From the NCBI RefSeq assembly GCF_009938165.1, contig NZ_AP019650.1:1116001-1180000 (forward strand): a DNA stretch of 64,000 nucleotides, read 5' to 3'. Position numbers and translations under genes: made by a program. Below are positions 31,180-49,295 of the stretch, in pieces (the first letter of the stretch is position 1; each line of letters starts with the position of its first letter). This DNA comes from Vibrio taketomensis. GTDB lineage: Bacteria; Pseudomonadota; Gammaproteobacteria; Enterobacterales; Vibrionaceae. Below the pieces are notes generated by a model. The model did not search any database. It was given only the letters and a program-made list of their open reading frames with translations, and was not told the DNA's origin.

Positions 31180-31546
31180 TCAACTAGGATGAACGCTGAT
31201 CTCAATCAGATTTTGTCGGATCAACAAATATACCGGTGAATTGCACCAACAGCCCCGACTTTTCTACTGGCCCTTCGATAATCTCAACCTTTTCTTTCTG
31301 TAGATGCTCAATAACGTCAGCCAGCGGCCAATTGGTGATTAAGCACACATCGCCTGAGCCTACATTGGCAATATTTCTCGGCTCTTGCCCCAAAAGCTGC
31401 AAATTGATCTTCTGCTGACCAAATTTTAACGCTCGGCGGCCATTAGCAAACGTCACCGCTTCCATGCATAACACCCGCTGATAAAAGCTGACCGACCGTT
31501 CGATATCAGCAACAGTAAGCACGATATGGTCAATATGGCTGATCAT
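31180..31546 (-). pseudogene. VOC-family (glyoxalase-like) protein, frameshifted near C-terminus
   Basis: Start 31546 gives MISHIDHIVLTVADIERSVSFYQRVLCMEAVTF, a VOC/glyoxalase fold protein of the YP_...-type single-module group (~125 aa). The frame is open to GIFVDPTKSD and then stops, where the family continues with a conserved '(R)DPDxNLIEIS' end. That end (LIEISVHPS) is found in another frame, stopping at 31180. Small deletions at about 31211-31225 explain it. The metal ligands (His near residue 7, Glu in the missing tail) would be restored by correcting them. This marks the right edge of ordinary sequence before the error-dense region. Confidence 0.65.
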
Positions 31547-31620
31547 GGCTATCCACCCTTTGTGACCTCAGCTACCCTATTGGATATGGTTTCTATTCAG
31601 ACTAATTGTTAGTACTTACT

Positions 31621-33726
31621 TCACATCCTCATACTCGTGTTGGAGTCGGTACCGACAAAGATCTGTAATTGTGTTGCTTCTTGCTCAAAACGATCATTGA
31701 TTCCCGTAAAACGCTAGTTCATCTGCCTTAATGGTAAAGCAAACCTTAGTTTCCTCACCTGCTGCGATAAACTGTTTTGCAAAGCCTTTGAGCTCGCGCT
31801 TAGGTCGTGTCGTTGAAGTGCCCGTTTGCGAAATGTGGCATTGAACAACTTCGTAACCATCGACTGCTGAACTATTGCGTACATCAACAGCAACTTCAAT
31901 ATCATCACCCACTGAATAGCGCTCTGAATTCACAACTAAATTGGAATATTCAGATTGACTGAAGCTAAGCCCATGCCAAACGGATACAATGGCGTATGCT
32001 GAGGTCTTTATACGCTCCTGAACGCCCTCATCTACCCAACTCTTTACGCGCATAGTAAATTGGAATTTGACCAGTTGATCTTGGTACCGTCATGGTCAGT
32101 TTACCTGACGGATTATTAATACCATAGAGTGTTCGAGCTACCGCATTGCCCGTTTGAGTGCCACTTTGCAAGCATAGATTGGGCATCTGCATAACGCTCA
32201 ATCGCAGCAGACGGCACTGGACGCCCAGTACATTGCACGATGATTAACGGTTTACCCGTTCTACCAATCGCTTCAATCATCTGCTCTTGACCTGCGGGTA
32301 AGGTAAGCTCAGCAATATTTCTTGCTTCACCCGTTCTGCGGTGGCTTTCTCCAACACAGCACCACAATATCAGCACGATGCGCACACTCAACCATCTCAT
32401 CACTAAATGCACAATCATCGGTGATGACCGTGTTTCGCATTACTCAGTTGTTTAATACCTTCAATAATAGAGACCACATCATCGGCTTTACCATCAAGAC
32501 ACCAGAACCAAGATGCTGGCGTTTTGGTCAGCATGCGGACCAATAACGGCTACTGTCAAACCGCTGTCTTGTAGCGGTAAATATGCCTTGTTGTTTTCAG
32601 CATCACCAAGCATTGCTCGGCAAGCTTAAGCGCCATCTCGCTGTGGGAAGATTTACCCAACATCTGTTTGTGAGATTCAGGATCTACATAAGGGGTTTTC
32701 AAATAGCCCGGCTCGGAACTTAGTTAGCAAAACACGGCGTACAGAGTCATCAACATAGTTCATCAACTCAGTTTTTCTCTAACGCTGATGCGACAAAATC
32801 CTCATAAGCTTCATGGGTCATCGCCATATCAATGCCGGCTTGAAGTGCTTTAACCGCCGCTTCTGTGCCATTTTTGCGACGCCAAAGTACTCAGATCAGA
32901 AATTGAGCCCCAATCGCTAACAACCATGCCAGAAAATCTTTGTTGTTGTTTTAACCAACCTTGAACCAGCGCTTTAGAGCCTGTCACTGGCGTGCCACCA
33001 AGATCATTAAAACCTGACATCACGTTGCGACACCACCTCAATTGCTGCTTTAAATGGTGGCAGATAAACGTTATGTAAAAGTGTTAGCAGAGATCTCGGT
33101 GGTATCATAGTCACGCCACCTTCAGAAGCGCCATAACCGACAAAATGCTTAGCGCATGCCACTAAACTGTCAGCCGCAGGCAGGATCGTCGCCTTGAAAC
33201 CTTTACGACTGCTTTGCCATTTGGCTGGTTAAAACGGATCTTCACCTGAACTTTCAATAACTCGACCCCAACGAGGATCGCGCACAAATGTCGAGCATCG
33301 GGCAAAGTCAATTAATGCCTAAGGATGCCGCTTCCGCTGCAATACAGCGATAAACTTTTCAACCAATTCAGGGTTCCATGAACATGATTGAGCTAACGGG
33401 ATTGGCAGCACGGTTTTTGCCCGTAAATCACATCACGAGCAAAATAATTGGGATCCCAAGTCGACTGCCTTCAACCGCCGCTGTTTGGATTTCATTCAAT
33501 TGATTTGGGTCAACCGTTTCGCCTGGCGCATTCCCAAAGCGGTATCGGCAAGAATACGCGAGCCCCATTCACCTCGGCTGACTTTAGCTAAATAAACCTC
33601 ACGGTTGTCAGCGTATTCCAACATCGGGGACTGGCAAAGTTGACCAATTTTCTCCACCAACAGTCATTTTCGCTAAGAGATCTTCTACGCTCATGATGAG
33701 GTAGTGACGCATCTTGATACTTTCCA
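31621..33726 (-). pseudogene. GH3 beta-glucosidase, many frameshifts
   Basis: Joining frames gives an approximately 700-residue family 3 glycosidase without signal peptide, thus cytoplasmic. In order: an N-terminal barrel (GEWGSRILADTALGNAPG, IPIIFARDVI, FAPMLDICRDPRWGR), the nucleophile Asp in VVSDWGS (codon 32913-32915), the second domain (CVGESHRRTGEARNIAELTLP) and the fibronectin-like end (GLSFSQSEYSN.. to FVGTDSNTSMRM). The apparent stop at 31694 is a shift; the true end is probably 31621. It should release glucose from imported beta-glucosides. It is the last gene of the import operon. In Listeria innocua, as I recall, a GH3 beta-glucosidase sits with the sophoro-oligosaccharide phosphorylase in the same way. 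Confidence 0.75.
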
Positions 33727-33739
33727 TTGGTTACTCCAT

Positions 33740-34189
33740 ATTGCTCCTGGCGTTGTAGTAAGGAAGGCTTCTGTCAGAAACTCTCTCATTTCGCTGGCAA
33801 GTTGCACGTTACCTGAATCACTTGCTACCTGTTGAAGTTGATCCGCCGCTTCTGGTATAGCGAGAATCTAGTTCGACATAAATCTGAATAAACTCTTCTA
33901 GTTGCTTCGCACTCAACTGATTAATAATCTCGTTTGGCTTCACTAAGGCTTGGTAGTAATAGTTAGGCTTAGGACCGAGCACCGCCCTTCAGGTTTCGAT
34001 AACTTGTTGATAGCCACCTAAATACTCATCACCTCGGCGCAGCTCCGGTTTGTTCATCCTTTAAGGCAATAATCGTTACCTTGCTGTTTGTTGCTCAGTT
34101 GCAAACTCAGTATTGCTGAGAAAGGTTATAGGTTTTAAGCCATGCCACGCTATACGCCACCAGCACCAGTGCCGCCAAAGCGCCCACTT
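33740..34189 (-). pseudogene. Broken small membrane-anchored protein, unknown
   Basis: Between the second permease and the GH3 gene lie about 450 bases that do not code in one frame. Joining frames gives one hydrophobic helix (ALAALVLVAYSVAWLK) and then a helical soluble part (GDEYLGGYQQVIE, GPKPNYYYQALVKPNEII, LSAKQLEEFIQIYVELDSR, PEAADQLQQVASDSGNV, ASEMREFLTEAF). I do not recognise it. The position just after a MalG-type permease suggests an accessory to the importer. Its start and end are uncertain because of indels. Confidence 0.4.
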
Positions 34190-34191
34190 GA

Positions 34192-35012
34192 TCAGATTGT
34201 GTTCATCACTTCACCTACCCCGGTAAACGCTTTAATGAAGTTCTTTTGCAAACAGAAGAAAACAATATACCGGACCGCTATCATGGTTGTCATCGCCCAT
34301 AACTGCTCCAAGTTCGTTCCCGGAACTTCAGTTTGGAAGTTATACAAGGCTAATTGCAGCGTCATTAATGACTCATCACGAACGTACAGTAGCGGTCCCA
34401 TAAAGTCATTCCACGCCCCATGAAGGTCAAATACCTACAGTAGCCAGTGCTGGGCGTAGCATTGGCAGACAATCTTTCTAAAGATGCAGAATTCACTTGC
34501 GCCATCAATGCGTGCCGCTTCCAAGGTAAGCGTTGTCAATCTCGCCATAAACTGAACCAACAAAGAAGATGTTATACGCACTGATCGAGCCTGGAATAAT
34601 CAACACTCGGTGTGTATTAATCAGTTCCACTCATACATCATCATGTAAGTCGGAATGGTAAAAGTACGGCTGGAATCATCATCGAACCCAAAATAACTTT
34701 TAACAAAACTCGTCCTGGAAGATTAGTTTGACGATGGCATACAAACCATTGAGAGAACAAAGTATTTAGTGCAGTAACAGAAACTGAGATGAAAATAGTA
34801 TTAAAGAACCATGAAACAAATTCACTGGCTCAAATACTTCAATATAGCCTTTGAATGACCACTCTTTTGGTAGACTGTTCCGGGTAAATACTTTCTGGAC
34901 CAGTCTTGAATGAGTTAATAATCATATAAAAGAATGGATACATCACCAATATAGAAACGGAGTACCAAAAGTGCCATAGAATTAATATGGTTTTATTTTT
35001 ATTCTTTTCCAT
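34192..35012 (-). pseudogene. Sugar ABC permease, MalG type, frameshifted
   Basis: The start at 35012 reads MEKNKNKTILILWHFWYSVSILVMYPFFYMIINSFKT, typical of the second (MalG/LacG) permease of sugar ABC importers. The C-terminus reads HGAWNDFMGPLLY-like, then LMTLQLALYNFQTEVPGT..KNFIKAFTGVGEVMNTI and the stop at 34192. The EAA-loop region lies in other frames between. About 273 residues if repaired. It pairs with the upstream MalF-type permease, three bases apart. Confidence 0.7.
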
Positions 35013-35014
35013 CG

Positions 35015-35877
35015 TTAATCTTCGCTTACTAGTGATCTTCAACTGCATCATGGTTAACAAGTAAATAGCAGCAGCAAGCATCAAGCCTATCGTTGACGCC
35101 TCACCATCTTCATCTACTCAAAACCTGTTTGATAGAGATATAAAACCGGCGTGCTGCTGATTAGTGGACCACCACTTAAATCAAAGTTCATAAAGACTTC
35201 AATGAACATTTTAAACCGTTAATATTCATGGTCATAACAAAGATGATTTGCGGCATGATCGTGGCGGTGTGATTTTGCTCGTTTTACGCCACCACGAAGC
35301 GCCATCGATATCAGCAGCTTCAAACAAAGAACGATCAATACTTGCAATACCGCCAAGGGAAAATGATCATCTGAACACCAAACCACTTCCAGGCGCTGAA
35401 CACTGCAATCACAGGCATTGGCAACCATTGCTCAAACTTCAAAAACAGGCTCGCTTAACATAGATGATTCGACCATCGCTTTACTGGACCAGATGGTCCA
35501 GAAACAAAATCAAGATCACCATCGCAACCGTGATCGAAGTAATGACTGGTATAAACATAATGGTTCGGAAGAAACTTGCCATAAATTTAATTCATTTAAC
35601 AGCAAAGCTAAACCCAAGCCAATAATAAAGCTCAGAAATACAAATATAACCTGGTTAAATAACACGTTAAATAGTGACTTCCAAATAACGTATCTGTTAC
35701 AACAGAAATCCAGTTTGCCAAACCAACAAACTTAGTGTTTTCCGGAAGCAAAATATTCACATTCAAAAACTACTTTCAAAGAAAGAAAGGAAGATGGATA
35801 CATCAAAAGAAAACAGTGAAATATATAATCCAAGGTTACCAAGATACATATCCCATAATGAGATTATTTCTTTTCAT
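35015..35877 (-). pseudogene. Sugar ABC permease, MalF type, frameshifted
   Basis: Start 35877 reads MKRNNLIMGYV and, over several frames, PWIIYFTVF, ENTKFVGLANWISVVTDT, then GASWWRKTSKI near the EAA loop and an end DGEASTIGLMLAAAIYLLTMMQLKITS with a likely stop at 35015-35017. This is the first inner-membrane permease of a MalFG-type sugar importer (about 287 residues). It lies between the binding protein and the second permease, the standard order. Confidence 0.7.
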
Positions 35878-35905
35878 ATTTTTACCACACTAATCCGTTG
35901 ATATA

Positions 35906-37128
35906 TTATTGCTTAAATATATCTTTAGCCTGTTGACTTGCTGCATCGACAGCTTGTTGAGTGTCACTTCTTTCAACACTACTTTGGAGTATTGCTGCAA
36001 AATGATATTGGCCACATCTGCCGACTGTGCAAATGGTTCACTCATGATGGTATAGGAAGTTGCTCCACAAACGGTTTTGCCTCAACACTCTTGTAATAGG
36101 GCGCTCTTTCAACGATACCAACGCTGGAAGCTGACCAAGCGTCATGTTCGCTTTGTGGTTTAGCTCGTCATCCATCAAGACTTGGACAAACTGCCAGCTC
36201 AACTGCTCTAGTTCTTGATCACTTTTAAAGATCATCAGTGCGCGACCATCTAACGTCGAATAAGATTGATCACCTTTGTTTAGAGTTGGAATCGGCGCTA
36301 ACCCAACATCTTCACCAATCACCATTGGCTTTTGCAGCTTCCGCCAAGTTGGCTTTCCAACCGAAACCAAACTGTGGCCACATACCAATGTTTCTTGAGA
36401 AAAGCTCTTCTCCATAGTAAGTGGGGCATACTGCTGTACTCGCTGCATAGTCGAGAGAAACGTCGCCATATTGGCGTCTTGCTTATCGAAAATGGGATGA
36501 GTACCAAAACGGTTTAACAAGGTATATTCACCACCGTTGAAGTTGTAATACAACTGAGCAAGCATCCCCAATACCAGCTCCCGTCGATAGGACGTCATTC
36601 CATAGCACTGTCCCATAGACTGGGCTGCCATCGGCTCTTGGCGGCAGTTGGTTTATTTTATTCGCCGCAACAAAACTCATCCCAAGTTTTAGGCGGTTGT
36701 TCGGGTCTAATCCCGCTTCACGAAATAGCTCTTTGTTGTAAATCATTAGCTGGGTGGTCACATTCCATGGAATGTAGTAGCTGCGACAAAATTTTGCGCA
36801 TAAATACCGGATCAATACGCTCAACCAATTCTTGATAACCTTCGAATTGATCAAAATATGCCAATTTCCCCATCTTGGCATAGCCGGTTGGTAACCAAAC
36901 ACCCTGCATAGAGGTTTGGCAAGTCACCGGCAACCATACGTGTCTCTAGGTTTTCATCGTTCGATACCACCACTTTCACGTCAGGAAAGCGTTTATTAAA
37001 TTCAGGAATCACTTCCTGACGAACGAAGTTCATATAGTTACCTGCAGGCGTCATCACCTCTAACTTGGTGGCAGCCGCCGCGCGGTTTGATAGCTAAGGC
37101 AAGCGCACCCGATTAACCATTTCTTCAT
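35906..37128 (-). pseudogene. Extracellular sugar-binding protein of the ABC importer, frameshifted
   Basis: Start 37128 gives MKKWLIGCA and a signal peptide once one shift is removed. The body has LEVMTPAGNYMNFVRQEVIPEFNKRFPDVKVVVSNDENLETRMVAGDLPN, YYIPWNVTTQLMIYNKELFREAGLDP and MSFVAANKINQLPPRADGSPVYG, which is a family 1 solute-binding protein (SBP_bac_1). The C-terminus QQAVDAASQQAKDIFKQ ends at 35906. About 407 residues. As the first gene after the regulator it should capture the oligosaccharide in the periplasm. Confidence 0.72.
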
Positions 37129-37160
37129 GATCACCCTACAAAGTTTCCCTCGAGATCAGC

Positions 37161-38107
37161 TTAGTTGGTGGATGCGTAATTCTTCCAGGTCTTTTCACCG
37201 TTAAGTGCATCAATCAATGTTTGTGCAGCTAACTCACCCATACCTGTTTTCTGATGGGAGATGGTCGTTAACCTAGGAATCATCAATTCAGCCATATGTA
37301 TATCGTCAAAACCGACTAGCTTCATATCTTCGGGGATATTGATACCGTGCTCTTTTGCAGCACGCATATATAGCCATTTCATCGTTCGCTGCAAAACCGC
37401 TTTCGGCTGTTTGCCTTTTCGAGCAGTTCTAGCATTTGTGCGTACTGATTTCTCAGTGAAGTCACTCTCAACCAGCAAGTCATCATTTACAGCAATTTTA
37501 GTACCCAAGTGCAGAGATGTATCCATCAAGGCGTTTTTGAGCATCGTATGAGTCATTCGGTCCACCAAAGTAATAAATCTCTTCGCATCCAGAAGCGATC
37601 AAGGCTTTGGTGGCAGCAACTACACCACCGAAGTTATCAATCAAAATGTTATAAATGTGTGGACCTGAAACCTCGCGGTCCAAAACTGCAATGGGAAATC
37701 CTTTTTCGCTATAGCCTTTAAGAACTCATCATCAAACGAGTTGGTAAGAATAATGGCACCGTCAACGACTCTGTCTCAGAATGTATTTATGCGCAGTCGA
37801 ATTTTCATTGCCGTACATACTGCATGCCACTAGGTCATATCCATGTTGATGACATACTTGTTCAATACCTTTCACTAATTCACTGTAGATAGGGCCAAAC
37901 CATGAGTTGAAGAATAGACCGATAGCATTGCTCTTTTTCTGCTTGAGTTGTTTTGCATTGCTATTTGCTACGTAATTCATTTCTGCGGCAACGCTAAGCA
38001 CGTGCTTGCGTGTAGCTTCACTGATACGAGTGCTTCCGTTCATAGCATAAGAAACGGTCGCAATCGACACGTTTGCTTTTGGCTACATCTTTAATCGTAA
38101 CTGTCAT
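37161..38107 (-). pseudogene. LacI-family regulator of the glucan locus, frameshifted
   Basis: Start 38107 reads MTVTIKDVAK, then after a shift VSIATVSYAMNGSTRISEATRKHVLSVAAEMNYVAN, the LacI/PurR DNA-binding domain with its hinge. The sugar-binding part reads SNAIGLFFNSWFGPIYSELVKGIEQVCHQHGYDLVACSMYGNE, VSGPHIYNILIDNFGGVVAATKALIASGCEEIYYFGGP and LVGFDDIHMAELMIPRLTTISHQKTGMGELAAQTLIDAL. About 315 residues. It lies directly before the binding-protein gene and probably controls the locus through AAACGTTT-type operators. Confidence 0.75.
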
Positions 38108-38155
38108 GTATAAATTATGTCCTTGTTTAGAATCATTAACCGCCAACTGGTTTTG

Positions 38156-38168
38156 TTGAAACGATTCT
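38156..38168. promoter_or_regulatory. Candidate operator before the LacI-type gene
   Basis: TTGAAACGATTCT, an imperfect match to the AAACGTTT palindromes found elsewhere in the locus, lies about 50 bases before the regulator's start. Confidence 0.35.
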
Positions 38169-38222
38169 ACCAAGAAAGCGCATTAAGCAACAATTATTGC
38201 TGAATTAGCGTTAGAAGGCGGG

Positions 38223-38250
38223 AGGTTAATCCGGATTTCCGGATTAACCT
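38223..38250 (-). terminator. Perfect 12-bp hairpin after the GH94 gene
   Basis: AGGTTAATCCGG / CCGGATTAACCT with a 4-base loop. It lies 50 bases after the GH94 stop and ahead of the regulator. No T-run follows on the minus strand, so it may be a terminator with help from Rho or a processing hairpin. Confidence 0.55.
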
Positions 38251-38299
38251 CATTTCTTAAAGTAATTTCAGTAAATTGTCGTTCTGATTTAAGTTTTAT

Positions 38300-41200
38300 T
38301 CAACCACTACGACATACCAACGCCGCACCGGAACGATAGCGGTTAGGCATTAACTCAAATGGTACGTCTTGACCATTCAGTTTAATCGTTTTAGGTGTAT
38401 GACTGCCTTGTTGTGGTGAAATAAGCAGTTTAACCAACTTACCTTCGATTTCGTATTCAATAGCAACCTTGCCCAAACGTGGCGAGATAACTGGGTCAAG
38501 AACCAAATCATGGTTGTCGAAACGTAGACCGAACACACTACTAATCAATTGATTTAAATGAATCCCAGGCCCACTTGAATAGATTCTCCAGCCACCTTTA
38601 CTGCCACTTCACCAGAGCGTACTTTTCAAAGTTATCGTAAGCCATGTAACGGTCGTTAAACTTGGCATCAGAGCTCGAAGTATACGTTCGACTGGCGCAG
38701 CTCTGCATTTGGAACCCATCTTGAATACCAACAGGAATAATCTTGTACAGGTTATCAAATACCGCTTCTGCATCCCCAGCACATAACGCTTCAATAAAAC
38801 GAATATGCGCATGGCGGTACTGAAGACCGACTTCACGCCCCAGGTTCGCCGCTAACTCTGCACGTTTAAAATACGTTTGTTCACCCGCTTTATATTCAGC
38901 CATTTTATCCATCAAGCGCACACCATCAGGATGAACCAAACGATCTTTGATCACTGCCATGGCTGTGCGCCATTTTCGGCGAAAATGTCTCGGAGATAAT
39001 TGAGCGACTCGCAGGCAGTAAACGATGCTTAATGCCTGTTTTCTTATCAGCAGGGTGAAGTAAATATTCCACTTCTTTCACTTCGCCATTTTCGGCACGA
39101 TCAAAGTGAATAAAGCCAGCGATGGTGTCATCTTTAATCAAGTAGTGGTAGTAATCATGCTCCATTGCTTGTGCCAACTGCGCCAGTTGCGCAGAGAACT
39201 CAACGTGTGATGCATTCTTTTCTAGCACTGTAACCATGCCTTTCAATGCTTGTAAGGTAAGCGGAATCGTCAACCACTAACCATATTTTCACGCAATGAC
39301 TGATTCGCAGGCTGCAAAGTATCATCCCAGTCACCATCACCATAACAAAGAGTGACGTACCAGGGGACTAGATTGTCGATAATGTGCTGAACTTGGCGTT
39401 CAACGTGAGCAAACAGTGAGTATGTTTGTTCACTCTTCGCAAACCATGATGCGCTAATGTGTATGGCAACATTTCATTGAGCAATTCGAAGTCACCCGTC
39501 ACAGCGAGGTAATCGGCTAGTGCTTTTAATGGCAAACAACGATGTCACCATGTGACTCTTCTTGTTGAATTACCGCATATTGATCAAACATAAACCATTG
39601 TGGCCACGTGCCGGTTTCTTGATACTGATGACTATAGATTTCTTTAAACAAGTCGCGAGCTTTCGCGTACTCTTGCATCGACATAAACAGCTCAAACGGA
39701 CCTTGCGATACATCACGTGTACCCACGCCGCGCCTGGTATTGCTCTAAACCATGCGGCGTGCTGTAGTGCACACAAGGGCGTTATGTGTAACCAATGTAC
39801 CGTCTCATTCAGACGTTGGCTGTTCAATTCATCGGCTTCGAAATGCAGCTTGAAACCTTTAGTCAGTTGATTGACTTGAGGTGGCATTTTGCCGTCTCTT
39901 CATCAAAATCTACCCACCCTTTTGAATTAACACCGTTAAACTCGCCACAATAGCAATACGAGCTTTATCGCTAACAATACCTTTAAGAACTAGGTATTCA
40001 GGAGTTAGTCTCTGGATTGGTGAAGATATCGCTCGCTAAGCTCGGCACTTGGCTCAATTGCGAAACTTAGATCTTTACCGAACTTATCAATCAGTTCATT
40101 TCACCGCGAACAACGAAACCTTACCCTCTTGGCTCACAGAATCTTGCTTTCACCTTCGTTGTTGCCAAACACCAATTGATGAGACACTGCAACTTCGAGT
40201 AAAGAATTCAGACCATGAGTAGCAATCTCAAGTTGAATGAGCGGCGATTCTGCAGCAGCAAACGAGCGTACTTCAATGAAACCATCGCCGTATTTATAGA
40301 TCAACGAGTAGTGGTACCAACTTCGTATGCTGAGGCATACCCAAAACTTGGTATTGCTCGCCTTGTTTTACCCAAATTCGCTGACCGCTGTTAGCAAACT
40401 GGTTCAATGGGTTACGACATACGCCTAATAGCTTGTTGAAGAAGTATTGCCTAGCGTCAATTGCGAGTTAAATACACCATAGATGTGGTGCGTCGCGCTC
40501 ATGATTGGGTTGCGGTAATCTTTGTTGTTGCCTGATGCAATGACGCATGACCCGTTGCACGCTCAAGATAGCGCTCTTTAGCTGCTAACGTCACGTATTG
40601 GCTGTCGCCATAGAAAAATGACAACAATTCAGAGCCCTGCTTTTCAGCGAAACGTCGCTCATCGCCAAACCAATCAACTAACTCTTGCTCCGTAAGCTCT
40701 GCGCCATTGATGTATGCCGCTTTTGCTTGGGGCTGATGTTTCCAGCGCTGACTCAAGTTGAGAGCAGCCAGACTTGGCATGCAATTCAACAATCGTTGAC
40801 ATCGCAATGGGTTGAGTCCAGTTAGAGCTAGAACAATTGGCTTCCACAATCGCATAGAAAGTATGGATAGCTGCCTTGTTTGACTGAGCAATGCTTGGCG
40901 CAGTTTGCAAAGCAACATAGCCAAATTCATATGGTACTTTTCGTTTGGTAGTTCACGCAGTTCCAGTGCCGCTGCCTGACCAGTAAACTTAAATTGTTTA
41001 CCGAAGAATTGATAGCCATCTGTACTGTAAACCAACGATAGGGCTGAAACAACCAAGTTGAATACGAGGGTTACCAGAACTTTGCGGTAAGTTCTGGCGA
41101 CTACATAGCGTAAACCACACTCAGGTGAATTAAACACCTCATGATCAAGGTACTGTGAACAGTATGCTTCATTGGTTTTCACTGCGCCTTCATCAGCTAA

Positions 41201-41580
41201 GCCAAGGTCTTGACCGTAAACGGATCATAGTTGAAATCGCTACCACTGGTGTTCAACACTTCAACGTCGTAAAGCATTCTCGACAATTTTTACTGCAACA
41301 GTAGCTTGGAATACGTCGGTTGTCGTGCGCCATGCAGGTAAACCACTTGACTGTATAAACGTTTCAATTTGTTGATTAAAAAGCAACGGCGTTGCTGTTA
41401 CCACATCATTTTCAAATGCGTAAGTAAATATTGCTGATTGCGTGTTCGCCAGTTGGTGTTCAAATAGCGATACCATCAGTTTGTCACTGCGAATAGCAGC
41501 CAACATGCCCTGTGGGCTAAATGTCATATTGAGTTTTCACCACCGACATTCAGTGCCGGTTGATTAATTTATTGGTACAT
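38300..41580 (-). pseudogene. GH94 phosphorylase, 1,2-beta-oligoglucan phosphorylase type, frameshifted
   Basis: Joining frames yields an approximately 1090-residue protein. Near its middle are GTRDVSQGPFELF and CYGDGDWDDTLQPANQSLRENM (DWDD at 39321-39332), the GH94 region expected to hold the catalytic Asp; cellobiose phosphorylases have DWNDGM there instead and are ~800 residues. The C-terminal third has YFSSSDAKFNDRYMAYDNFEKY, GGWRIYSSGPGIHLNQLI and FGLRFDNHDLVLDPVISPRLGK. Size and motifs match the Listeria-type enzyme that phosphorolyses sophoro-oligosaccharides to glucose 1-phosphate. The start may be ATG 41580 or Met 41527. No signal peptide is seen, so cytoplasmic. Subfamily assignment is from memory and needs a search. 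Confidence 0.68.
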
Positions 41581-42704
41581 TGCGAATACTCTCAGACGCC
41601 GCAAAGATTAAGAATAAAATATTGTTGTCAGTCGCATCATCAAACAGATGACACTTACTCATGAATAGTTCGATATAGCAACGGCTTGCAACCAATGGGA
41701 TCAGCTCTCGATCTGACTGCTTACATACCACTCGGCAACCAAGTACATTAAGGTGGATATATACCTCCGAGCCAAGTTCCTATCGCTTCAACTTCCGCTG
41801 ATAACGTATTGGGATTACTTTCGCTGCACACAGCGATATGCTCAGGTCGAATACCACACATGAACGGGTTTATCTAGCCACATTTCTGCCCGTGCGTGAC
41901 GCTCTTGTGGCGATCGCACTTTACCACCTAAGTTAACACCAACCGCATCGCCCGATTTAACCACTTTACCACCTAGCATATTCATTGCTGGCGACCAATA
42001 AATTCTGCTACAAAGCGATTCTTTGGATTGTGATAAACGTTCATCGGTGTATCAACTTGCATGATACTGCCTTTGTTAAGAATGCATACACGGTCACCAT
42101 CGTCATTGCTTCCACCTGATCATGTGTAACGTAAATCATGGTCGCAGGGCTACCGGAATCCTTTAGCTGCTGGTGCAAACGCGTAATACGCATGCGCATT
42201 GATACCGCAATTTAGCATCAAGGTTTGATAACGGTTCATCAAAAGAAATACCTGGTTTGCGCACCATTGCGCGTCCGAGCCACTCGTTGACGCTGACCGC
42301 CAGACATCTGCTTCGGCTTGCGATCAGGCAACTCAGTAATCTCTAGTAGCTCAGCAGCTTCTGCTACACGACGTTCAATTTCTTGTTTGATTTCTTAGCT
42401 GTCTCCAAACCGAACGCCATGTTTTCATAGGTTGTCATATGTGGGTATAGCGCATAGTTTGGAAAACCATCGCAATTCCACGGTCTTTTGGAGGCAAGTC
42501 ATTACACACCTTGTCACCAATTGATAACTGACCGCTGGTAATGCTTTCTAATCCTGCAACCATTCTCAGCATGGTTGATTTCGCACATCCTGAAGGTCCA
42601 ACTAGCACCATAAATTCACCATCCTTGATGTCTAAAACATCATGAATCGCGTGGAAACCGTTGTCATAAACCTTATTGATGCCTTCGAGTGTAACCTTTG
42701 CCAT
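41564..42704 (-). pseudogene. Sugar ABC importer ATPase, MsmK/MalK-like, frameshifted
   Basis: Start 42704 reads [24 protein letters not shown]. Motifs in order are Walker [29 protein letters not shown] (ABC signature), [10 protein letters not shown] (Walker B) and the C-terminal TOBE-like part with KCHLFDDATDNN. The Walker A third Gly is Ala (GPSGCA not GPSGCG). About 380 residues; the exact end near 41564-41610 is unclear and may overlap the GH94 start. Such ATPases drive the MalFG-type permeases encoded at 34.2-35.9 kb. Confidence 0.7.
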
Positions 42705-42731
42705 TGGCTTTTTATTCCTATTCAAAAGCTA

Positions 42732-42748
42732 TGTTAAACGTTTCAACA
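42732..42748. promoter_or_regulatory. Candidate LacI-family operator before the ATPase gene
   Basis: TGTTAAACGTTTCAACA, centred on CG at 42739-42740, is a near-palindrome 28 bases before the ATPase start. Confidence 0.5.
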
Positions 42749-42813
42749 AAGAGTAGCGATACAGAGGTTTTAATCAATCTATAAATACAACTACTCTTAC
42801 GTTTCGTGATCTT

Positions 42814-44194
42814 TTATCTAGTGTTACGGGGTAGCGGATAAGTTTCATCAGCAACAAAGTCGTCATACATTAACTCAGAGTCGCTTGATAATTTCTTGAA
42901 GCTAAATAGCGATGAACGTTGCCACGTATAGACTCAGAAATGAATGCTCCCACAAACATCCCCTGATCAAGACCAATGACTTTATGAGATACTTCTCCTT
43001 GGTCATTGATAGCATCAACCCATCAGCACTGGTTTCTATTTGCGGATTATCCTGTTTAAGTTTGTTTAAACGATTTAAGGCGTCCGTTTCATTTATCATG
43101 TAATAGAGCGCTAGAGTATGCGGAGAACCTGTTGTTCCTGTCTCGATCGAATTACCAAATTTGCGATAACTTTCTGAGACGCTTTCTAAACCATAAGCGG
43201 CATAGCCGTCAGCAACGGTAGCCGAAGCGGAAACAAATGGAATACTGTACTTGTCCGCGTAAGTTGCATGGACACGAGAAAAGTCAGTCACTATCTGATA
43301 ATCCGGTATTAAACTCGCCTCATCTAGCCACAATGCTGGCAACATAGCTTGGAAATAAGAACCATCCCAAGTCAGTAGCGATTTACTGTGTTGCCATTAA
43401 GCTCCACATTCCCCGTCATTAACCACATATCTTCAAACACTGTAGTTGGCACTCGCCTTCGCACACTAACACCGCCCAAAGAGGCGCCAGGCGGCTCTCG
43501 TTGGCTTTGCGATCGATGTAGTACCAAGAAAATCATTAGATTTATTGCTCCAACCTGCCCTCAATAATCCTCGAGTTGAATCATAAAGCGCTTCCCAACC
43601 ACTTTGTTGTGCCGTCAGTAGCTGTTCCGCCCGAGCTGCAATTGCGTTTAAACGTTCATTACTATCATTTTCAAAGCGCCAACTAGCCCAGCTAAAGTAA
43701 ACGACGTAATTGCGTTATCGACAGCCGATGCCGTCGCATCTTGATTAATGGCTAATTTCTGGTTTTCAAATTGGTAGAGCCAATAGAACAATCCACGCCA
43801 CTTCGGTGCGGCTTCTAATTGTGTCAGAGACTCGCTCTAAACGAGTGATCGCTTTCTCATCGTTAGCTTCAACCATTTCTATCAAGACATTGATATATAA
43901 AGCAATGGTTGAAATATTAGTGTAAGAAGAGACCGCTATATTCTCACCGTTAACCAATACGTGGTCGTATGGCAAATGCGTGCTGCTAGAAACACCGATT
44001 CCATCCAGAAAGTAATCGATGTTATCTTGCAGTGACTGTTCAAACCCTGCTGGATAGACATCTGGGGCAAGTTCAATTGCATTGATCGCCGTGTGATTGG
44101 GTAATTGGGTAGACGTTTGACTATCAGATGAACCACCACAACCCATCATCAAAACAAGAGTAGAAGCAACAAAAGGGATAGATATTCGTTTCAT
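42814..44194 (-). pseudogene. Secreted lipoprotein glycosidase (GH144/glycoamylase-like), paralogue 1, frameshifted
   Basis: Start 44194 gives MKRISIPFVASTLVLMMGCGGSS, a lipoprotein signal with Cys19. The body, over several frames, parallels the second copy: YFLDGIGV, SYTNISTIALYINVLIEMVEAND, FQAMLPALWLDEASLIPDYQIVTDFSRVHATYADKYSIPFVSASATVADGYAAYGLESVSESY, GTTGSPHTLALYYMINE. This is an (alpha/alpha)6-barrel enzyme with the layout of the glycoamylase/GH144 group, which contains endo-beta-1,2-glucanases. About 460 residues, likely outer-membrane anchored. Function is inferred from fold pattern and locus. Confidence 0.6.
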
Positions 44195-44213
44195 AACAAC
44201 CTCTAAATTAGGC

Positions 44214-44235
44214 ATAAAAAGCCCCGAAGGGCTTT
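44214..44235 (-). terminator. Terminator after the porin gene
   Basis: On the minus strand AAAGCCC-TTCG-GGGCTTT is followed by TTTTA. It lies 77 bases after the porin stop and ends the glycosidase 2-porin transcript. Confidence 0.8.
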
Positions 44236-44311
44236 GAGCAGTGTTAGGGCGCAATCTCGATAAGTTTAAATAAACTAATTGGTTAATAACTTATATTGCT
44301 TTGCAATTTGA

Positions 44312-45329
44312 TCAGAATGTCCAAATCACGCCGACTTTGGCAAACACACCTCTTTGTCACCCCAAGTGTACTGATTGCCATTGCGCTGTTGATGGTCACG
44401 ATACGCTAGATCTGCGAGCAGACTGATTGACTGGTTAACCGGAATTTCGGTGTATAACGCATAGTTGTTGTAGTCATACCCCGTACCATCAAAGATTTCG
44501 GTTTCACCTAATTCGTATCGTAATTCCAGATATACGCCACTATCGAACTTAAACTGTACGAGCGGCTTAATCGCTGTTTCTGTCCACGCAAAGTCATTCT
44601 TATCTTCGTGATATAAGAACTTAGTGCCAAGATTGATCCAGTTATTTAAACGATAAACATAAAGCGGTTCCGTTTCATAAAACATCGCCCCTTCTTCATC
44701 CCAATAACCAGACTCAGGTTTAGGTGCAAGAAGTGATTGCCGAAAGTAAAATTCAGCTCTGGCGTGATCTGGTAACGCGTGCTCTCTTCAAAGCCTGTCA
44801 CTTTTCGTAGCCAAATTCAATCGCATGGTTAAATGACTCGTTTACCCACTTCTCATAACGTGGCATTAATTCCGTAGTCAACAGTGCATTGCCTTCCGAG
44901 ACTTTGTCTTTACCACGATACTTATGCGTTTCTTTTAACACGTAAGCTAATCGGAAATTATCCGTTATCTTGGTTGAACCATCTGCAAAGATAATCGATT
45001 GAAATAGCTGACTTGGTGCATTGTCATAGACATATTCTTCATATTCAAAACCAGTCAGAACACGGGTTCGCTTCATAGTTGCGACAGATTCATTAGAAGC
45101 CATCAACACATCACCAAAGCCTCCCACATCTTCTAATCCTCAAAACTGGTGGTGGTAAGTGCACCATAATTGGGAAATTCAATGCCATCCCACATACGAG
45201 GTTGCTCTTTTAGCGCAGCATAACCGTCAAGTTCAACGCCTTGCCAGAAGCCTACCTTCTCCCTTCTGCAAATACAGGCAATGAGGATGCGGCAGTAAGA
45301 GCGAGCGCAAGTGCCGTTAGTTGTTTCAT
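44312..45329 (-). pseudogene. Outer-membrane porin of the glucan locus, frameshifted
   Basis: Start 45329 reads MKQLTALALALTAASSLPVFA, a clear signal peptide. The body alternates as beta strands (TRVLTGFEYEEYVYD, DNFRLAYVLKETHKY, SFNHAIEFGYEK, WINLGTKFLYHEDKNDFAWTETAIKPLVQFKFDSGVYLELRYELGE, SISLLADLAYRDHQQRNGNQYTWGD) and, after one shift, ends EVFAKVGVIWTF, a barrel with the C-terminal Phe typical of outer-membrane proteins. About 339 residues. It should admit the oligosaccharides; the porin family is not one I can name. Confidence 0.65.
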
Positions 45330-45346
45330 ACTAATACCACTCACTG

Positions 45347-46678
45347 TTAACCGTTGTTTGGAACATAACTGCGATACATCTGCTGAACATCAGCCATGTA
45401 ACCACGAGCCGTTAAGTACTTTTCTACATCTGCGTTGATTTCATCAGCTAAGAACACCAACAAACATTCCTTGGTCAGAGATAGGATCTTGGTTGACATT
45501 TTTCCTTGTGAATCAACAGCATCATACCAACCAAACTCTGACTCAATTTGCGGGTAGTAGTTCTTCAGCGCTTTCAATGCTTGCACTGATGTTTCAGGGC
45601 TAACGATGTAAGACAGTGCGAGCGCATGGCGTGCCAGTTGTACCTTCATGAATTTCATTGTTGAATTTCACTTTGCTCTCTGACAGGAATGGGACACCAA
45701 ATGCTGCATAGGCGTCATCAACCGTCGCAGAAGAAGATACCAGTGGAATGTTGTGCTTCGCAGCATAAGTCATCTGCAAGAAAGTCATGTCTTTGACCAT
45801 AGTGTAATCAGGCATCAACTCTTGCTCATTCAGCCAAATTGCAGGCAGCATAGCTTGGAAATAAGCACCATCCCAAGTCAGCATTGGATTGTATTCTTTA
45901 CCATTGAAAGTGTACTTATGGGTATAGAGTTCCATAGTATCGAAAGCAGATTGAGGGATGGCTTTATCGCCCGTTCCTTTCGTAATAAGCGCAGCCCAAA
46001 GTGGCGCTAAACGGCTTTCATTCGCTTTACGGTCGATGTAGTAAGGAAGCGCCGCATCATTTTAGTGCTCCATCCCGCATGCAACAGACCTCGACCTTGG
46101 TCATAAATTTCAAACCAGCCTTGTTTTGTCCAACGAGAATGGCTTCAATACGTTCAACAATTTTTGTTTCTCGGCATCCGTTGCGTCCAGGTACGCACCA
46201 GCTACGCCTGCGAGTGCAAGAGCTAAGTTGGCGTTATCAACCGCAGGAACAATACCGTCGGCTGTTGGTTTTAGCTTACCTTCAACAATATCGTACGGCC
46301 AGAAATATAGACCTTTCCATGTCGGTGTTTCTTCCTAATACATCAAGCACTTCCGCGATACGTGTTAAGGCTTTTCCTTCACCTGCTTTTTCAGCTTCAA
46401 CCAAAATATTCAGATACAAACCAATTTCTGTCGTGTTTACGTAGTAATGCGGTTTACCTTACCTTCCACAATCGAAACAGTGTCAAAAGAACTTTAGCAA
46501 CAGGGTCTACGCCAACACCATCTCTAAAGAAGTTAAGGTTATTTTGCAATTCCGCTTTAAATTGCGCTGGATACAGATGGTCACGAACAGATAATTCATT
46601 AATAACCACATCGCTTGCGAATGCATTACTAGCGAGGCCAAACAGCACAGCGACTGCGAGTACTTTTGTATTTATCAT
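45347..46678 (-). pseudogene. Secreted glycosidase (GH144/glycoamylase-like), paralogue 2, frameshifted
   Basis: Start 46678 gives MINTKVLAVAVLFGLASNAFA, a cleavable signal. Joined frames give EIGLYLNILVEAEKAGEGKALTRIAEVLDVL, GLYFWPYDIVEGKLKP, DQGRGLLHAGW, YYIDRKANESRLAPLWAALITKG, NPMLTWDGAYFQAMLPAIWLNEQELMPDYTMV, AAFGVPFLSESKVKFNNEIHEGTTGTP, EFGWYDAVDSQGK and an end SYVPNNG. The order (Trp-Asp-Gly box, then FGVP box, then G-WYDA-D) is that of the glycoamylase/GH144 (alpha/alpha)6 enzymes. About 443 residues, soluble in the periplasm or exported. Likely a depolymerase for the locus's glucan. Confidence 0.62.
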
Positions 46679-47064
46679 TGTAGAATTCCGTTTTATTTCG
46701 CTGGACTCAAACTTAAACGTTTCTATTAATCTGTGATAAATATTCGTGGTCGTCAATACTGTTAGTTGTGTAAACGTGATCCAGTTACAATATTATTTAT
46801 TTTTCGAATAAAAATAGCACTAAAAATAAAATTAACCATTTTAATTCAATAACTTAAAGGAACAAAACAATAAATAACACTCATCTATTCATCCAAGTAC
46901 ATTCCGTTAAACCATGCCAAAACTTGGTCATAATCACAAAACGAATAGTCGTTTAAACGTTTTACTTGATTAGTAAAGCCAATATGGACATGCTTTAACC
47001 AATTAAACGTTTAAACAAATTTTATCCCTACAAAATTTTAAGCGGTATAACGATATGACCTGTA
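46679..47064. promoter_or_regulatory. Divergent control region with three candidate operators
   Basis: This 386-base AT-rich region separates the minus-strand glycosidase operon from the plus-strand lipoprotein. It holds three AAACGTTT cores: 46713-46725 (TTAAACGTTTCTA, 35 bases before the glycosidase start), 46951-46965 (GTTTAAACGTTTTAC) and 47003-47014 (TTAAACGTTTAA, a perfect palindrome). All probably bind the LacI-family regulator of the locus. No promoter elements are called with confidence. Confidence 0.55.
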
Positions 47065-48288
47065 ATGTTTTTAACAAAGCTCCTCGCGACTCTAATATGC
47101 ACAGCAGGCTTAACTGGCTGTTTAGATGATCCATACAATGAGCCTGATACCTCAACGCCACCACCTACATCACAAGAGATCCTTTATATTCACCAAATGG
47201 TGATAGCGCTTTTATTCTGGCGATTACTGATAGTAGTGGAACCGAAGCGATCGTGGACGGTAATAACGTTTCTCAAGGCAATGTTAGCGTTACCAATATC
47301 TCTGGCGAAAAAACGGTATGTTAAACGTCACTATCACTGACAATAAATCTGGAAGAATTGCACTCACAAGTGGCGATAGCAGTAATGTTAATTTAAATGT
47401 TGATCCTGCAACCTCTACATTGCAGTTTTCTACGCGAGCTATGAGTCTGCCAAGTTCAGGGCAAGAGATTTACATCACTAGCCAAAAGAGCACGACACTG
47501 ATATAGGTAAAGTATCGCTTACCAGTAGTTACACAGCTAGTTATAAAGGATCGACACAAACAATTAAGATCCCTCTATCCTGTTTTACTGAAGCGGGAAT
47601 GGACTTTAATGATGCTATATCACCGTTTACTTTCGTATCTAACAACAACCTCAATTTTGATCTTGGCAACATCCGCATCGTGACGAACTCAATAAATCAG
47701 CAAGATGTGTTGGAGTGTGACAACACAAGTACTTTACTCAAGCTGATGACCCTAGTGATGCCTTCAAAGCAAGCAAAGTATTTGTGGTAGGAAGCCCTTC
47801 AACCGGATGGGCAACAGCAGTTACCAACTGGATGACAGTCGGAAATTCTACCCTTCACTGGGGACATGACCACATTCGCATTGAATACAGTAACGCTCCA
47901 GCAGGAGAAAATGGTGGCTTAGTACTTGCAACTCAGGACAAGTCATTAAAGACATATCAAACTATGTAGATAGTGGTGTTCTACAGTTCATGTTTTATGT
48001 AGATAGCTATGCTAATCACCCGACTAAACGCTTCCAAGTTCAGATGGAGTCCAGCACTCATGGAACTCCGAGCCATACTTTCTACCAGCAGGAGCAGCAG
48101 AGAAAGGTTGGCAGCAAATTCAAGTACCACTGAGAGATCTATTTACTCGTAAAGATGGTTCTATCAATATCAATGCGCTAAGAAATATAGATAAAGCCGT
48201 ATCAATCTTGCCAGAATGGGTGGAAGGTGAAGACACGCTTCAAGGAATGGACTTCTCTATTGGCAGTGTACAGGTGGTTGTCCCATAA
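47065..48288 (+). pseudogene. Surface lipoprotein with two ExoP-like glycan-binding domains, frameshifted
   Basis: Start 47065 (MFLTKLLATLICTAGLTGCLDD) has a lipobox with Cys19. Joined frames give two similar beta domains. The first (~30-200) ends IKIPLSCFTEAGMDFNDAISPFTFVSNNNLNFDLGNIRIV; the second (~210-405) ends IQVPLRDLFTRKDGSININALRNIDKAVSI.... This resembles the C-terminal domain of ExoP-type GH3 beta-glucanases. It has no catalytic domain, so it is probably a glycan-capture protein on the outer membrane. About 407 residues; divergent from the degradation genes. Confidence 0.55.
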
Positions 48289-48362: not shown

Positions 48363-49295
48363 TTAGCAAGCCAAAACTTTATAACCCAACACCGCCTTAA
48401 GTTCACCCATAGATTGAAATTGTTGTTTGAGAATACGCATTGGTGTTACTGGCATACCATAGAAATCCACTCTATCACCAATAATCTCGCCACCTAAGTC
48501 TGTAAGAATATGAATGGTTGCATCTCGCGCATCCGTCATGATTTCATCGGTGTTGTGGAACAAATACTCGAGGGAATGAAGAGCCAAAGCCTTACCAATA
48601 CCTAATCCTCTAAAACGACTATCGACTGCAAACCGCCCCCAATGCCATTCTTCATTTTCTTGCCAGCACGCAACTGCACCGACAACGTATTCACCAGAAC
48701 GAGCTACCCACCATTGTTGTGGAATATCGACATTGAGTGGAACGAGATTGCTAGGTATATTCTGTTCCCCCGTGAATGTATCCAATATTAAATCATCAAC
48801 CTCAATTTTATACTCTGGTCTTAGTTGCTCAATTTGGACTCTGGCTTTGTTGTGCGTGGCGTTTTTGCGAAATGCACTTAATCTCAATGCTCTTAGCCCC
48901 TGAATCACTGTCTCCGACTCTTCACAGGTCATCAACCCAAGCAACTCAGAAAGCTCATTATTTGCTGAGTTGTCAGCACTCGCTAATCGATTTACTCCGC
49001 ACATAGTGAGCACATAGCTTTTCTGCCGCTTGTCATTGGGGTTACAAACTACGTCAACGAACTTCATTTCGACTAACGTGTTAATGGCTCGACTTAGCGA
49101 TCCTTTTTCAACATTGAGCTGGTTAGACAGCTCCGTAAATGGCGTTAAGCCATTTTTACGTAAATAAGTCAGTAGATGAACTTGGGTGAGTGAGAGCCCT
49201 GAATTTAAGCAATTTTTATCTAATAAACCGAGCTCCCTCACTAGATATCTCAGCTCACTACGGATTTGTTCAATAGGCGACATTGCGTTTATCAT
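48363..49295 (-). CDS. MarR regulator fused to GNAT acetyltransferase
   Basis: The 310-residue protein has a MarR winged helix (about 10-140: SLTQVHLLTYLRKNGLTPFTELSNQLNVEKGSLSRAINTLVEMKFV) and a GNAT domain (about 150-305: WHWGRFAVDSRFRGLGIGKALALHSLEYLF with the acetyl-CoA Q/R-x-x-G-x-G/A loop). Such fusions are known but their ligand and acetyl acceptor are not. Start 49295 or Met at 49283. Two matching 21-bp palindromes stand directly in front and suggest autoregulation. This gene begins the return to intact frames. Confidence 0.8.
   Translation of the reverse strand: MINAMSPIEQIRSELRYLVRELGLLDKNCLNSGLSLTQVHLLTYLRKNGLTPFTELSNQLNVEKGSLSRAINTLVEMKFVDVVCNPNDKRQKSYVLTMCGVNRLASADNSANNELSELLGLMTCEESETVIQGLRALRLSAFRKNATHNKARVQIEQLRPEYKIEVDDLILDTFTGEQNIPSNLVPLNVDIPQQWWVARSGEYVVGAVACWQENEEWHWGRFAVDSRFRGLGIGKALALHSLEYLFHNTDEIMTDARDATIHILTDLGGEIIGDRVDFYGMPVTPMRILKQQFQSMGELKAVLGYKVLAC

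What the first reader, a model, noticed from the sequence alone, without database searches (positions are those of the whole stretch)
31621..48288. A glucan-utilisation locus, probably for beta-1,2-glucan
One contiguous region holds a large GH94 phosphorylase with DWDDTLQP (not DWNDGM), a GH3 beta-glucosidase, an MalFG-type importer with binding protein and ATPase, a LacI-type regulator, a porin, two (alpha/alpha)6 secreted enzymes with glycoamylase/GH144 features, and a surface lipoprotein. Together they form a full path: capture, cut, import, phosphorolyse, hydrolyse. I know of the cytoplasmic half in Listeria; the Gram-negative version with porin and outer-membrane parts is less familiar.
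Basis: partly seen in the sequence, partly recalled or inferred. Interest (0 to 1): 0.72.

Follow-up and report, generated by a model that had tools for sequence, protein, structure and literature searches.

The report
Beta-1,2-glucan eating locus, badly sequenced
A Vibrio carries a complete set of genes for capturing, importing and breaking down the unusual sugar polymer beta-1,2-glucan, and the many frame breaks in the deposited sequence look more like sequencing errors than dead genes.

Summary
The gene content is real: 12 genes at 31.58-48.29 kb match, in order, a locus that is intact in other Vibrio species. None is open here: 134 frameshifts (116 deletions, 18 insertions) and 16 stops. 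In-frame pieces of 8 genes show no overall missense excess over intact relatives, and runs of 6 or more equal bases are nearly absent (1; about 21 expected). A second accessory cluster in this genome is damaged alike. I read this as uncorrected long-read error, so the cell's locus is probably intact. [quoted passage not shown] the two secreted enzymes are GH192 beta-1,2-glucanases, not GH144; the porin model is closest to CymA, a cyclodextrin porin. With importer, LacI regulator, GH3 enzyme and surface lipoprotein this is a full Gram-negative beta-1,2-glucan path. SOGP is in 21 of 227 Vibrio genomes, GH192 in 17, all among those 21. New variant of a known kind. Lead in passing: a sister SOGP clade (Photobacterium, Endozoicomonas, two Vibrio) carries sulfatases instead of GH192 in 6 of 8 rows, hinting at an undescribed sulfated beta-1,2-glucan.

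The parts
47068..48285 (+). surface lipoprotein, ortholog of a 784-790 aa protein with Exop_C and CBM30-like domains; broken in the assembly
   Evidence: 6 frameshifts, 4 stops, large gaps; the alignment starts at 46786 but its N-terminal part is doubtful; lipobox in V. breoganii ortholog
46688..47067 (.). divergent intergenic (promoter) region between the lipoprotein gene and the operon
   Evidence: gap between mapped genes; promoter function inferred
45350..46687 (-). GH192 beta-1,2-glucanase, secreted (paralog a); broken
   Evidence: 9 frameshifts; acid motif ANESRLA at 46025, base motif AVDN at 46244
44315..45332 (-). CymA-like outer-membrane porin; broken
   Evidence: 5 frameshifts; barrel model of V. 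breoganii ortholog
42838..44194 (-). GH192 beta-1,2-glucanase, perhaps a lipoprotein (paralog b); broken
   Evidence: 7 frameshifts; ANESRLA at 43505, AVDN at 43725
41609..42704 (-). UgpC/MalK-type ABC importer ATPase; broken
   Evidence: 8 frameshifts; Walker A at 42599
38258..41580 (-). [quoted passage not shown] broken
   Evidence: 29 frameshifts, 4 stops; catalytic DWDD at 39332
37139..38107 (-). LacI-family regulator; broken
   Evidence: 8 frameshifts
35909..37128 (-). sugar-binding protein of the ABC importer; broken
   Evidence: 13 frameshifts
35019..35877 (-). MalF-type permease; broken
   Evidence: 12 frameshifts, 1 stop
34207..35012 (-). MalG-type permease; broken
   Evidence: 7 frameshifts
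33734..34202 (-). conserved 162-aa membrane-anchored, weakly TPR-like protein of unknown function; broken
   Evidence: (5 frameshifts, 1 stop)
31579..33737 (-). GH3 beta-glucosidase without evident signal peptide in orthologs; broken
   Evidence: (25 frameshifts, 6 stops)
31202..31546 (-). left flank: open glyoxalase-like gene, 114 aa (three relatives 121-129 aa; whether its end is damaged was not tested); outside the locus
48363..49295 (-). right flank: open MarR-GNAT regulator gene (outside the locus)

Best explanation
A beta-1,2-glucan utilisation locus of a Vibrio, probably intact in the living cell and broken only in this assembly. A surface lipoprotein holds the glucan. Two GH192 enzymes cut it, one perhaps on the surface and one in the periplasm. 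A CymA-like porin lets the pieces (or cyclic glucan) through the outer membrane. A MalFGK-type ABC importer brings sophoro-oligosaccharides into the cytoplasm. SOGP phosphorolyses them to glucose 1-phosphate and sophorose, and the GH3 enzyme splits sophorose to glucose. A LacI-type protein regulates the operon. The frameshifts are consensus errors of uncorrected long reads that remain in accessory regions of this genome. Shown by computation: gene identity, order, active-site motifs, error pattern. Inferred: substrate, location of each step, regulation, cause of the errors.
For: Substrate: SOGP domain set, best solved relative LpSOGP, 13 of 14 LpSOGP sugar-pocket residues identical in G021 by eye (with passages of PMC5309861); two GH192 homologs at E 9.7e-172 and 3.2e-115, catalytic motifs of both in window pieces; in the genus GH192 is found only in SOGP genomes (17 of 17); same operon core in Vibrio, Photobacterium, Endozoicomonas and Yersinia similis; porin model closest to CymA. 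Error reading: 134 frameshifts, 116 of them deletions, but identity to V. fortis 69.0% for the window against 69.5, 70.9 and 66.6% for three intact loci, and lineage-specific changes 62 of 1488 against 66 of 1492, 41 of 1467, 148 of 1574; 1 run of 6 or more in 16.7 kb, where the lowest count in any such stretch of 21 sampled sequences is 4 (itself a damaged cluster), then 7 (tandem repeat chunk) and 8; Poisson P 2e-08 from the flanks; same damage in an unrelated accessory cluster.
Against: No reads were available, so the error reading is indirect. Lesion sites are only slightly richer in homopolymers in the G021 ortholog (10% against 6% with runs of 5 or more; mean 2.99 against 2.79, reached by 52 of 5000 resamples). 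The damaged stretch ends close to the locus borders, as real decay would. Error density (about one per 118 nt) is high. MalG keeps a missense excess (11 of 127 against 1-3 of 117-119) and a cruder count showed a general excess. The GH3 enzyme has Lys where Lin1840 has the sophorose-binding Arg572. I saw no activity data for any Vibrio enzyme of this locus.
Confidence: 0.77

Rival explanations
1. A genuine, recently dead pseudogene cluster: the species lost use of beta-1,2-glucan and the operon decays by small deletions.
For: All 12 genes broken while flanking genes are open; damage ends near the locus borders; judged by the SOGP_N and GH192 matches, among 21 Vibrio genomes with SOGP only G000 is badly broken and G133 (perhaps V. 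maritimus) mildly.
Against: No overall missense excess and a normal codon-position pattern; only 3 stops in 2620 compared in-frame codons; homopolymer depletion; the same pattern in a second, unrelated cluster. Real decay should add far more substitutions than indels (recalled, not from a call).
Confidence: 0.13
2. The locus is for another glucan (beta-1,3, mixed, or a substituted periplasmic glucan) and the enzymes have drifted in specificity.
For: GH3 lacks the Arg572 equivalent; LpSOGP Gly623 is Ser here; the binding protein has no close solved relative (best E 5.5e-15).
Against: SOGP and GH192 point independently to the beta-1,2 linkage; the rest of the SOGP pocket that could be read is conserved; the representatives of GH192-194 were reported to act specifically on beta-1,2-glucan (PMC12102758 abstract).
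Confidence: 0.08
3. The patch is foreign long-read sequence (another Vibrio in the sample) wrongly placed in this chromosome.
For: Damage confined to whole accessory clusters in the two cases studied; no genome among the listed matches keeps the same flanks beside the locus.
Against: G+C of the locus is the host's; two separate clusters would both have to be misplaced.
Confidence: 0.04

Closest known systems
Listeria innocua SOGP cluster lin1838-lin1843 (PMC3960220, PMC4757417; passages read)
   Same: SOGP (GH94), GH3 beta-glucosidase, ABC importer genes and LacI regulator side by side; same cytosolic phosphorolysis plus hydrolysis
   Different: The passages read name no endo-glucanase, porin or surface lipoprotein; here SOGP is part of a Gram-negative set with GH192 enzymes and an outer-membrane porin
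GH192 beta-1,2-glucanases EeSGL1, PgSGL1, PgSGL2 of Endozoicomonas and Photobacterium (PMC12102758; abstract, passages, sections 2.1, 2.2, 4.2 and the first part of the Discussion)
   Same: Both secreted enzymes belong here by sequence and catalytic residues
   Different: The parts read characterise enzymes, not an SOGP operon; the E. elysicola SOGP locus fetched here has no GH192 within 10 kb
CymA porin of Klebsiella oxytoca (4v3h, 4v3g, 4d5b; Pfam calls its family a putative cyclodextrin porin)
   Same: The porin model ranks CymA chains in places 1-8
   Different: 16-17% identity; TM-score about 0.5-0.6; substrate untested
Nanopore-only assemblies with residual indel errors (Homopolish paper PMC8011154; passages)
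   Same: Deletion-dominated indels, fewer mismatches, reading-frame shifts; homologous genomes can correct them
   Different: Which technology or polishing made this assembly is unknown

Membership tests
SOGP (1,2-beta-oligoglucan phosphorylase, GH94) | SOGP_N, supersandwich, GH94 catalytic and SOGP_4th domains in about 1120 aa | tested here: met
   Intact ortholog L014:10362-13736; in the window SOGP_N is matched at 114.9 bits with 3 stops inside
SOGP (1,2-beta-oligoglucan phosphorylase, GH94) | Catalytic acid and sophorose-pocket residues of LpSOGP | tested here: met
   13 of 14 residues identical in G021, G623 is Ser (read by eye, chain number taken as paper number +1); Y1004-S1006 lay in the part not printed; in window pieces TNEAY, HGLEQ, DWDDTLQ, RAELAAN, GREVGLQYRHAH, YSSGPG found, AAWGTRD not found
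SOGP (1,2-beta-oligoglucan phosphorylase, GH94) | Phosphorolysis of sophoro-oligosaccharides of 3 or more units | not testable with these tools
   needs enzyme assay
GH192 | Sequence homology to EeSGL1 | tested here: met
   8XUJ at E 9.7e-172 and 3.2e-115, (intact G021 orthologs)
GH192 | General acid Glu (E221 of EeSGL1) and base Asp (D149) | tested here: met
   in the intact orthologs by eye (chain number taken as paper number +1) and as motifs in window pieces of both paralogs
GH144 | Homology to CpSGL/XcSGL (solved structures 5GZK, 8XUL) | tested here: not met
   at E 0.001 the PDB search gave only 8xuj and, for paralog a, 8wy1 (GH189) at 3e-05
Lin1840-type GH3 sophorose beta-glucosidase | GH3 domains, no signal peptide, related to Lin1840/JMB19063 | tested here: met
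   Lin1840 E 2.4e-140, JMB19063 3.9e-148, neither the best hit; no tree was built
Lin1840-type GH3 sophorose beta-glucosidase | Arg at position 572 (587 in JMB19063) | tested here: not met
   Lys in G003 by alignment and by motif in 10 of 10 SOGP-linked GH3 proteins
Genuine pseudogene cluster | Excess of amino-acid changes over intact relatives | tested here: not met
   (8 of 12 genes; MalG alone shows an excess)
Long-read consensus error patch | Deletion-rich indels, homopolymer depletion, no substitution excess | tested here: met
   but the link of lesions to homopolymers is weak
Long-read consensus error patch | Reads disagree with the consensus | not testable with these tools
   no reads held

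The most novel reading that the evidence does not exclude
The SOGP core operon is a shared inner engine with two interchangeable outer modules: GH192 plus a CymA-like porin for plain (perhaps cyclic) beta-1,2-glucan, and sulfatases for a sulfated beta-1,2-glucan that has not been described. The window holds the first kind; Photobacterium, Endozoicomonas, V. inusitatus and V. methylphosphonaticus hold the second.
Probability: 0.25. Interest if true: 0.68.

Novelty: new variant of a known kind. Interest (0 to 1): 0.4.

Why it matters
It extends beta-1,2-glucan use, known to me from the Listeria cytoplasmic half and from single enzymes, to a full Gram-negative path in mostly marine bacteria, with a candidate porin and a surface binder. 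It also warns that a genome rated 99.97% complete can carry whole accessory operons that look dead but probably are not, which matters for any scan that counts pseudogenes. The sulfatase-bearing sister loci make a concrete prediction about an unknown glucan.

Tried and rejected
GH144 assignment: rejected. The GH94 Pfam model on the own genome found only the intact gene at C1:488293; the window's copy is a SOGP found with PF21958. The 784-aa gene, labelled porA in my scripts, is a lipoprotein; the porin is the 347-aa gene (labelled lp347). KdgM-like was my first guess for the porin; the fold search put CymA and OmpG first; the profile search against PDB sequences gave nothing and Pfam only weak hits in single members. 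Alignment A2 held a MipA-type protein by mistake and was replaced by A7. Empty-site test: among the listed matches no genome keeps ppsA next to the glyoxalase gene or the two flanks together, so the insertion history stays open. The first relative-rate attempt with ungapped BLAST pieces showed a window excess (205 of 1900 otherwise invariant sites, against 25 of 1720, 16 of 1711 and 64 of 1759); I put it down to pieces that ran on past frame breaks (14 stops in them); GH192a and ATPase, without stops, showed no excess, LacI (8 of 173) and SBP (11 of 202) a slight one; trims five codons around every gap-type break, but insertion-type breaks are not trimmed. L116, another stretch without ORFs, is tandem 5.4-kb repeats, read as rRNA operons (no RNA search run). 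The other 18 sampled chunks were judged only by ORF cover and run density; small damaged patches in them would be missed. In one search G013 proteins without a tblastn hit or under 35% identity were left out. V. maritimus also has 7 frameshifts in 5 genes of the locus with normal homopolymer density; errors or decay unresolved. Controls: 58 gene comparisons in 5 intact loci (the lipoprotein was missing in L016 and L028); 57 of 58 without frameshift, the exception being the shorter lipoprotein of L017 (2); stops in 8 of 58 (1 to 8 each), which I take as alignment past gene ends or to non-orthologs.
Full report
What is there. The window lies in G000 contig 2 (1,116,001-1,180,000) of a 4.3-Mb, two-contig genome. 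The named records of the genome scan and family names such as VP0952 in a near relative put it in Vibrio; the species could not be named. Between 31.2 and 48.3 kb the longest ORF is 227 aa, while both flanks hold ordinary open genes: ppsA, a glyoxalase-like gene (114 aa, against 121-129 aa in three relatives), MarR-GNAT, LysR, enoyl-CoA hydratase. DNA search found the locus in other Vibrio genomes, best in G021, G009 and G003, at about 70% identity, where long ORFs replace the fragments.

Gene content. tblastn with the intact proteins maps 12 genes onto the window in the same order. On the minus strand: GH192a, porin, GH192b, ATPase, SOGP, LacI, binding protein, MalF, MalG, a 162-aa protein, GH3; divergently on the plus strand a large lipoprotein. 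Pfam and NCBIfam on intact orthologs support these names where they have a model; the porin and the 162-aa protein have none there. ATPase-SOGP-LacI-SBP-MalF-MalG-GH3 is conserved in Vibrio, Photobacterium, Endozoicomonas and Yersinia similis, with exceptions: the second P. rosenbergii copy (L035) has no GH3 after MalG, two records (L031, L033) are short contigs, and the 162-aa gene was not called by my ORF filter in L025, L035, L036 and L037.

Families. SOGP has the full SOGP domain set and LpSOGP as best solved relative at E 3.6e-221. From the passages of PMC5309861 that list the pocket residues, I compared 14 in the printed alignment by eye: 13 are identical and Gly623 is Ser. Both secreted enzymes match 8XUJ, which PMC12102758 names EeSGL1, of Group 1 = GH192; the general acid and base named there are kept in the intact proteins, and their motifs in the window's own pieces. 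The GH3 enzyme matches Lin1840 and JMB19063 among others and its orthologs have no evident signal peptide, but they carry Lys where those enzymes have the sophorose-binding Arg (for G003; motif in 10 of 10 proteins). AlphaFold2 on 7 aligned orthologs gives the 347-aa protein a beta barrel of about 14 strands (mean pLDDT 69.6, first 92 residues under 50), and Foldseek ranks CymA chains in places 1-8 and OmpG next. Pfam calls CymA a putative cyclodextrin porin; this suggests, without proving, uptake of cyclic beta-1,2-glucan. The 162-aa protein is a membrane-anchored helical, weakly TPR-like protein (no match at E 0.001).

Dead or misread. A frameshift-aware alignment to G021 proteins counts 134 frameshifts (116 deletions, 18 insertions) and 16 stops over 5262 aligned residues; in five intact loci 57 of 58 gene comparisons have none. 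If the locus had decayed, missense changes should have piled up too. On 2620 in-frame codons of 8 genes, identity to V. fortis is 69.0% for the window and 69.5, 70.9 and 66.6% for G021, V. sinensis and G003; lineage-specific changes at otherwise invariant sites are 62 of 1488 against 66 of 1492, 41 of 1467 and 148 of 1574; the share of differences from G021 at third positions is 0.62 against 0.64 and 0.57. Four genes were left out of that count (lipoprotein, porin, GH192b, 162 aa); MalG alone shows an excess (11 of 127). An earlier, cruder count showed a general excess, 205 of 1900, that I attribute to pieces running into wrong frames. The locus holds 1 run of 6 or more equal bases; the flanks predict about 21 (P 2e-08). 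In 20 sampled 20-kb chunks and the left flank the lowest count in any 16.7-kb stretch is 4, in a chunk that is itself damaged, then 7 in the tandem-repeat chunk, then 8. That damaged chunk, C2:700,001-720,000, is an aryl-polyene-like cluster (name recalled from its ApeI, ketoacyl synthase and lyase domains); matched to 17 open genes of G013 it shows 76 frameshifts (71 deletions, 5 insertions), 11 stops and 4 runs of 6 or more in 16.4 kb. So at least 1 of 20 chunks holds another damaged cluster. Two unrelated accessory clusters damaged alike, indels without substitutions, and lost homopolymers fit uncorrected long-read consensus. PMC8011154 (passages) describes such errors and polishing by homologous genomes; regions without close homologs would stay uncorrected, which could explain why accessory clusters are hit. 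That last step is inference. Against it: the lesion sites are only weakly tied to homopolymers in G021, and no reads were seen.

Distribution. SOGP_N is in 21 of 227 Vibrio genomes, own included; 19 of the other 20 have no stop in the match. GH192 is in 17 of 227 at E 1e-20, all among those 21. A tree of 21 SOGP proteins has a clade of 8 rows (support 97/97), 6 of them with sulfatases in the fetched stretch (Endozoicomonas, Photobacterium, V. inusitatus, V. methylphosphonaticus) and 2 on short contigs with neither label, and a clade of 10 Vibrio rows (98/96), 9 with GH192 and porin and V. comitans with the porin only. Y. similis, with GH192, stands outside both on a long branch; Fictibacillus was labelled GH192 from a 24% match. 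All labels together need 5 changes (shuffled mean 8.8, as low in 0 of 200). Seven of seven sulfatases looked at carry C[GQ]PSR; the one searched is closest to a putative sulfatase, a mucin-desulfating sulfatase and a GlcNAc-6-sulfatase. In L030, L032, L036 and L038 one sulfatase gene follows GH3 directly. This is the most novel lead: no paper in the library holds the terms 2-glucan, sulfatase and oligoglucan phosphorylase together.

Known or new. Judged by titles and the starts of abstracts, searches listed no paper on a Vibrio beta-1,2-glucan locus (852 papers fit, 12 were shown); the Vibrio mentions in the two SOGP papers I opened concern chitobiose and lacto-N-biose phosphorylases. Supplements and closed papers were not seen, and the GH192 authors may describe the Photobacterium gene cluster there. 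Verdict: a real beta-1,2-glucan locus, new variant of a known kind, probably misread in this assembly.

Noticed in passing
L130 (G000:C2:700001-720000), about 3-19.6 kb: A second accessory cluster (ketoacyl synthases, ApeI-like dehydratase, aromatic lyase, AMP-binding; aryl-polyene-like) with 76 frameshifts against 17 genes that are open in G013.
   Followed up: yes
L030 20750-22399 and 6898-8370; L032 3231-4940 and 20582-22180; L036 2490-4232 and 20439-22043; L038 20378-22042: SOGP loci of Endozoicomonas, Photobacterium and two Vibrio carry sulfatases with CGPSR/CQPSR motif, hinting at a sulfated beta-1,2-glucan.
   Followed up: partly
L024 4875-15764: V. maritimus has 7 frameshifts in 5 genes of the same locus, with normal homopolymer density; errors or early decay unresolved.
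   Followed up: partly
window 33734-34202; L023 17490-17978: Conserved 162-aa membrane-anchored, weakly TPR-like protein inside the SOGP operon, no Pfam or NCBIfam match in the G021 ortholog.
   Followed up: partly
L016 16598-17953; L027 1960-3276; L028 4749-6047: A MipA-family protein stands near the locus in the V. fortis group; its protein (from L016) has no match in the window.
   Followed up: no
L032 4974-8366; L036 5559-8264: Proteins of 1130 and 901 aa next to the sulfatase-type operons have no Pfam match; the first also has no PDB sequence match.
   Followed up: partly
L116 (G000:C1:300001-320000): Tandem copies of about 5.2-5.5 kb, read as rRNA operons from their spacing and lack of ORFs; no RNA search was run.
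   Followed up: partly
L037 3606-20218: Yersinia similis carries the SOGP operon with GH192 and the porin, divergently arranged, next to an autotransporter gene.
   Followed up: no
G083, G136, G222: Three Vibrio genomes have GH192 copies about 13-34 kb away from their SOGP gene; in G222 these are in addition to a near copy.
   Followed up: no
L032 and L035: Photobacterium rosenbergii has two SOGP genes about 60 kb apart on one contig.
   Followed up: no
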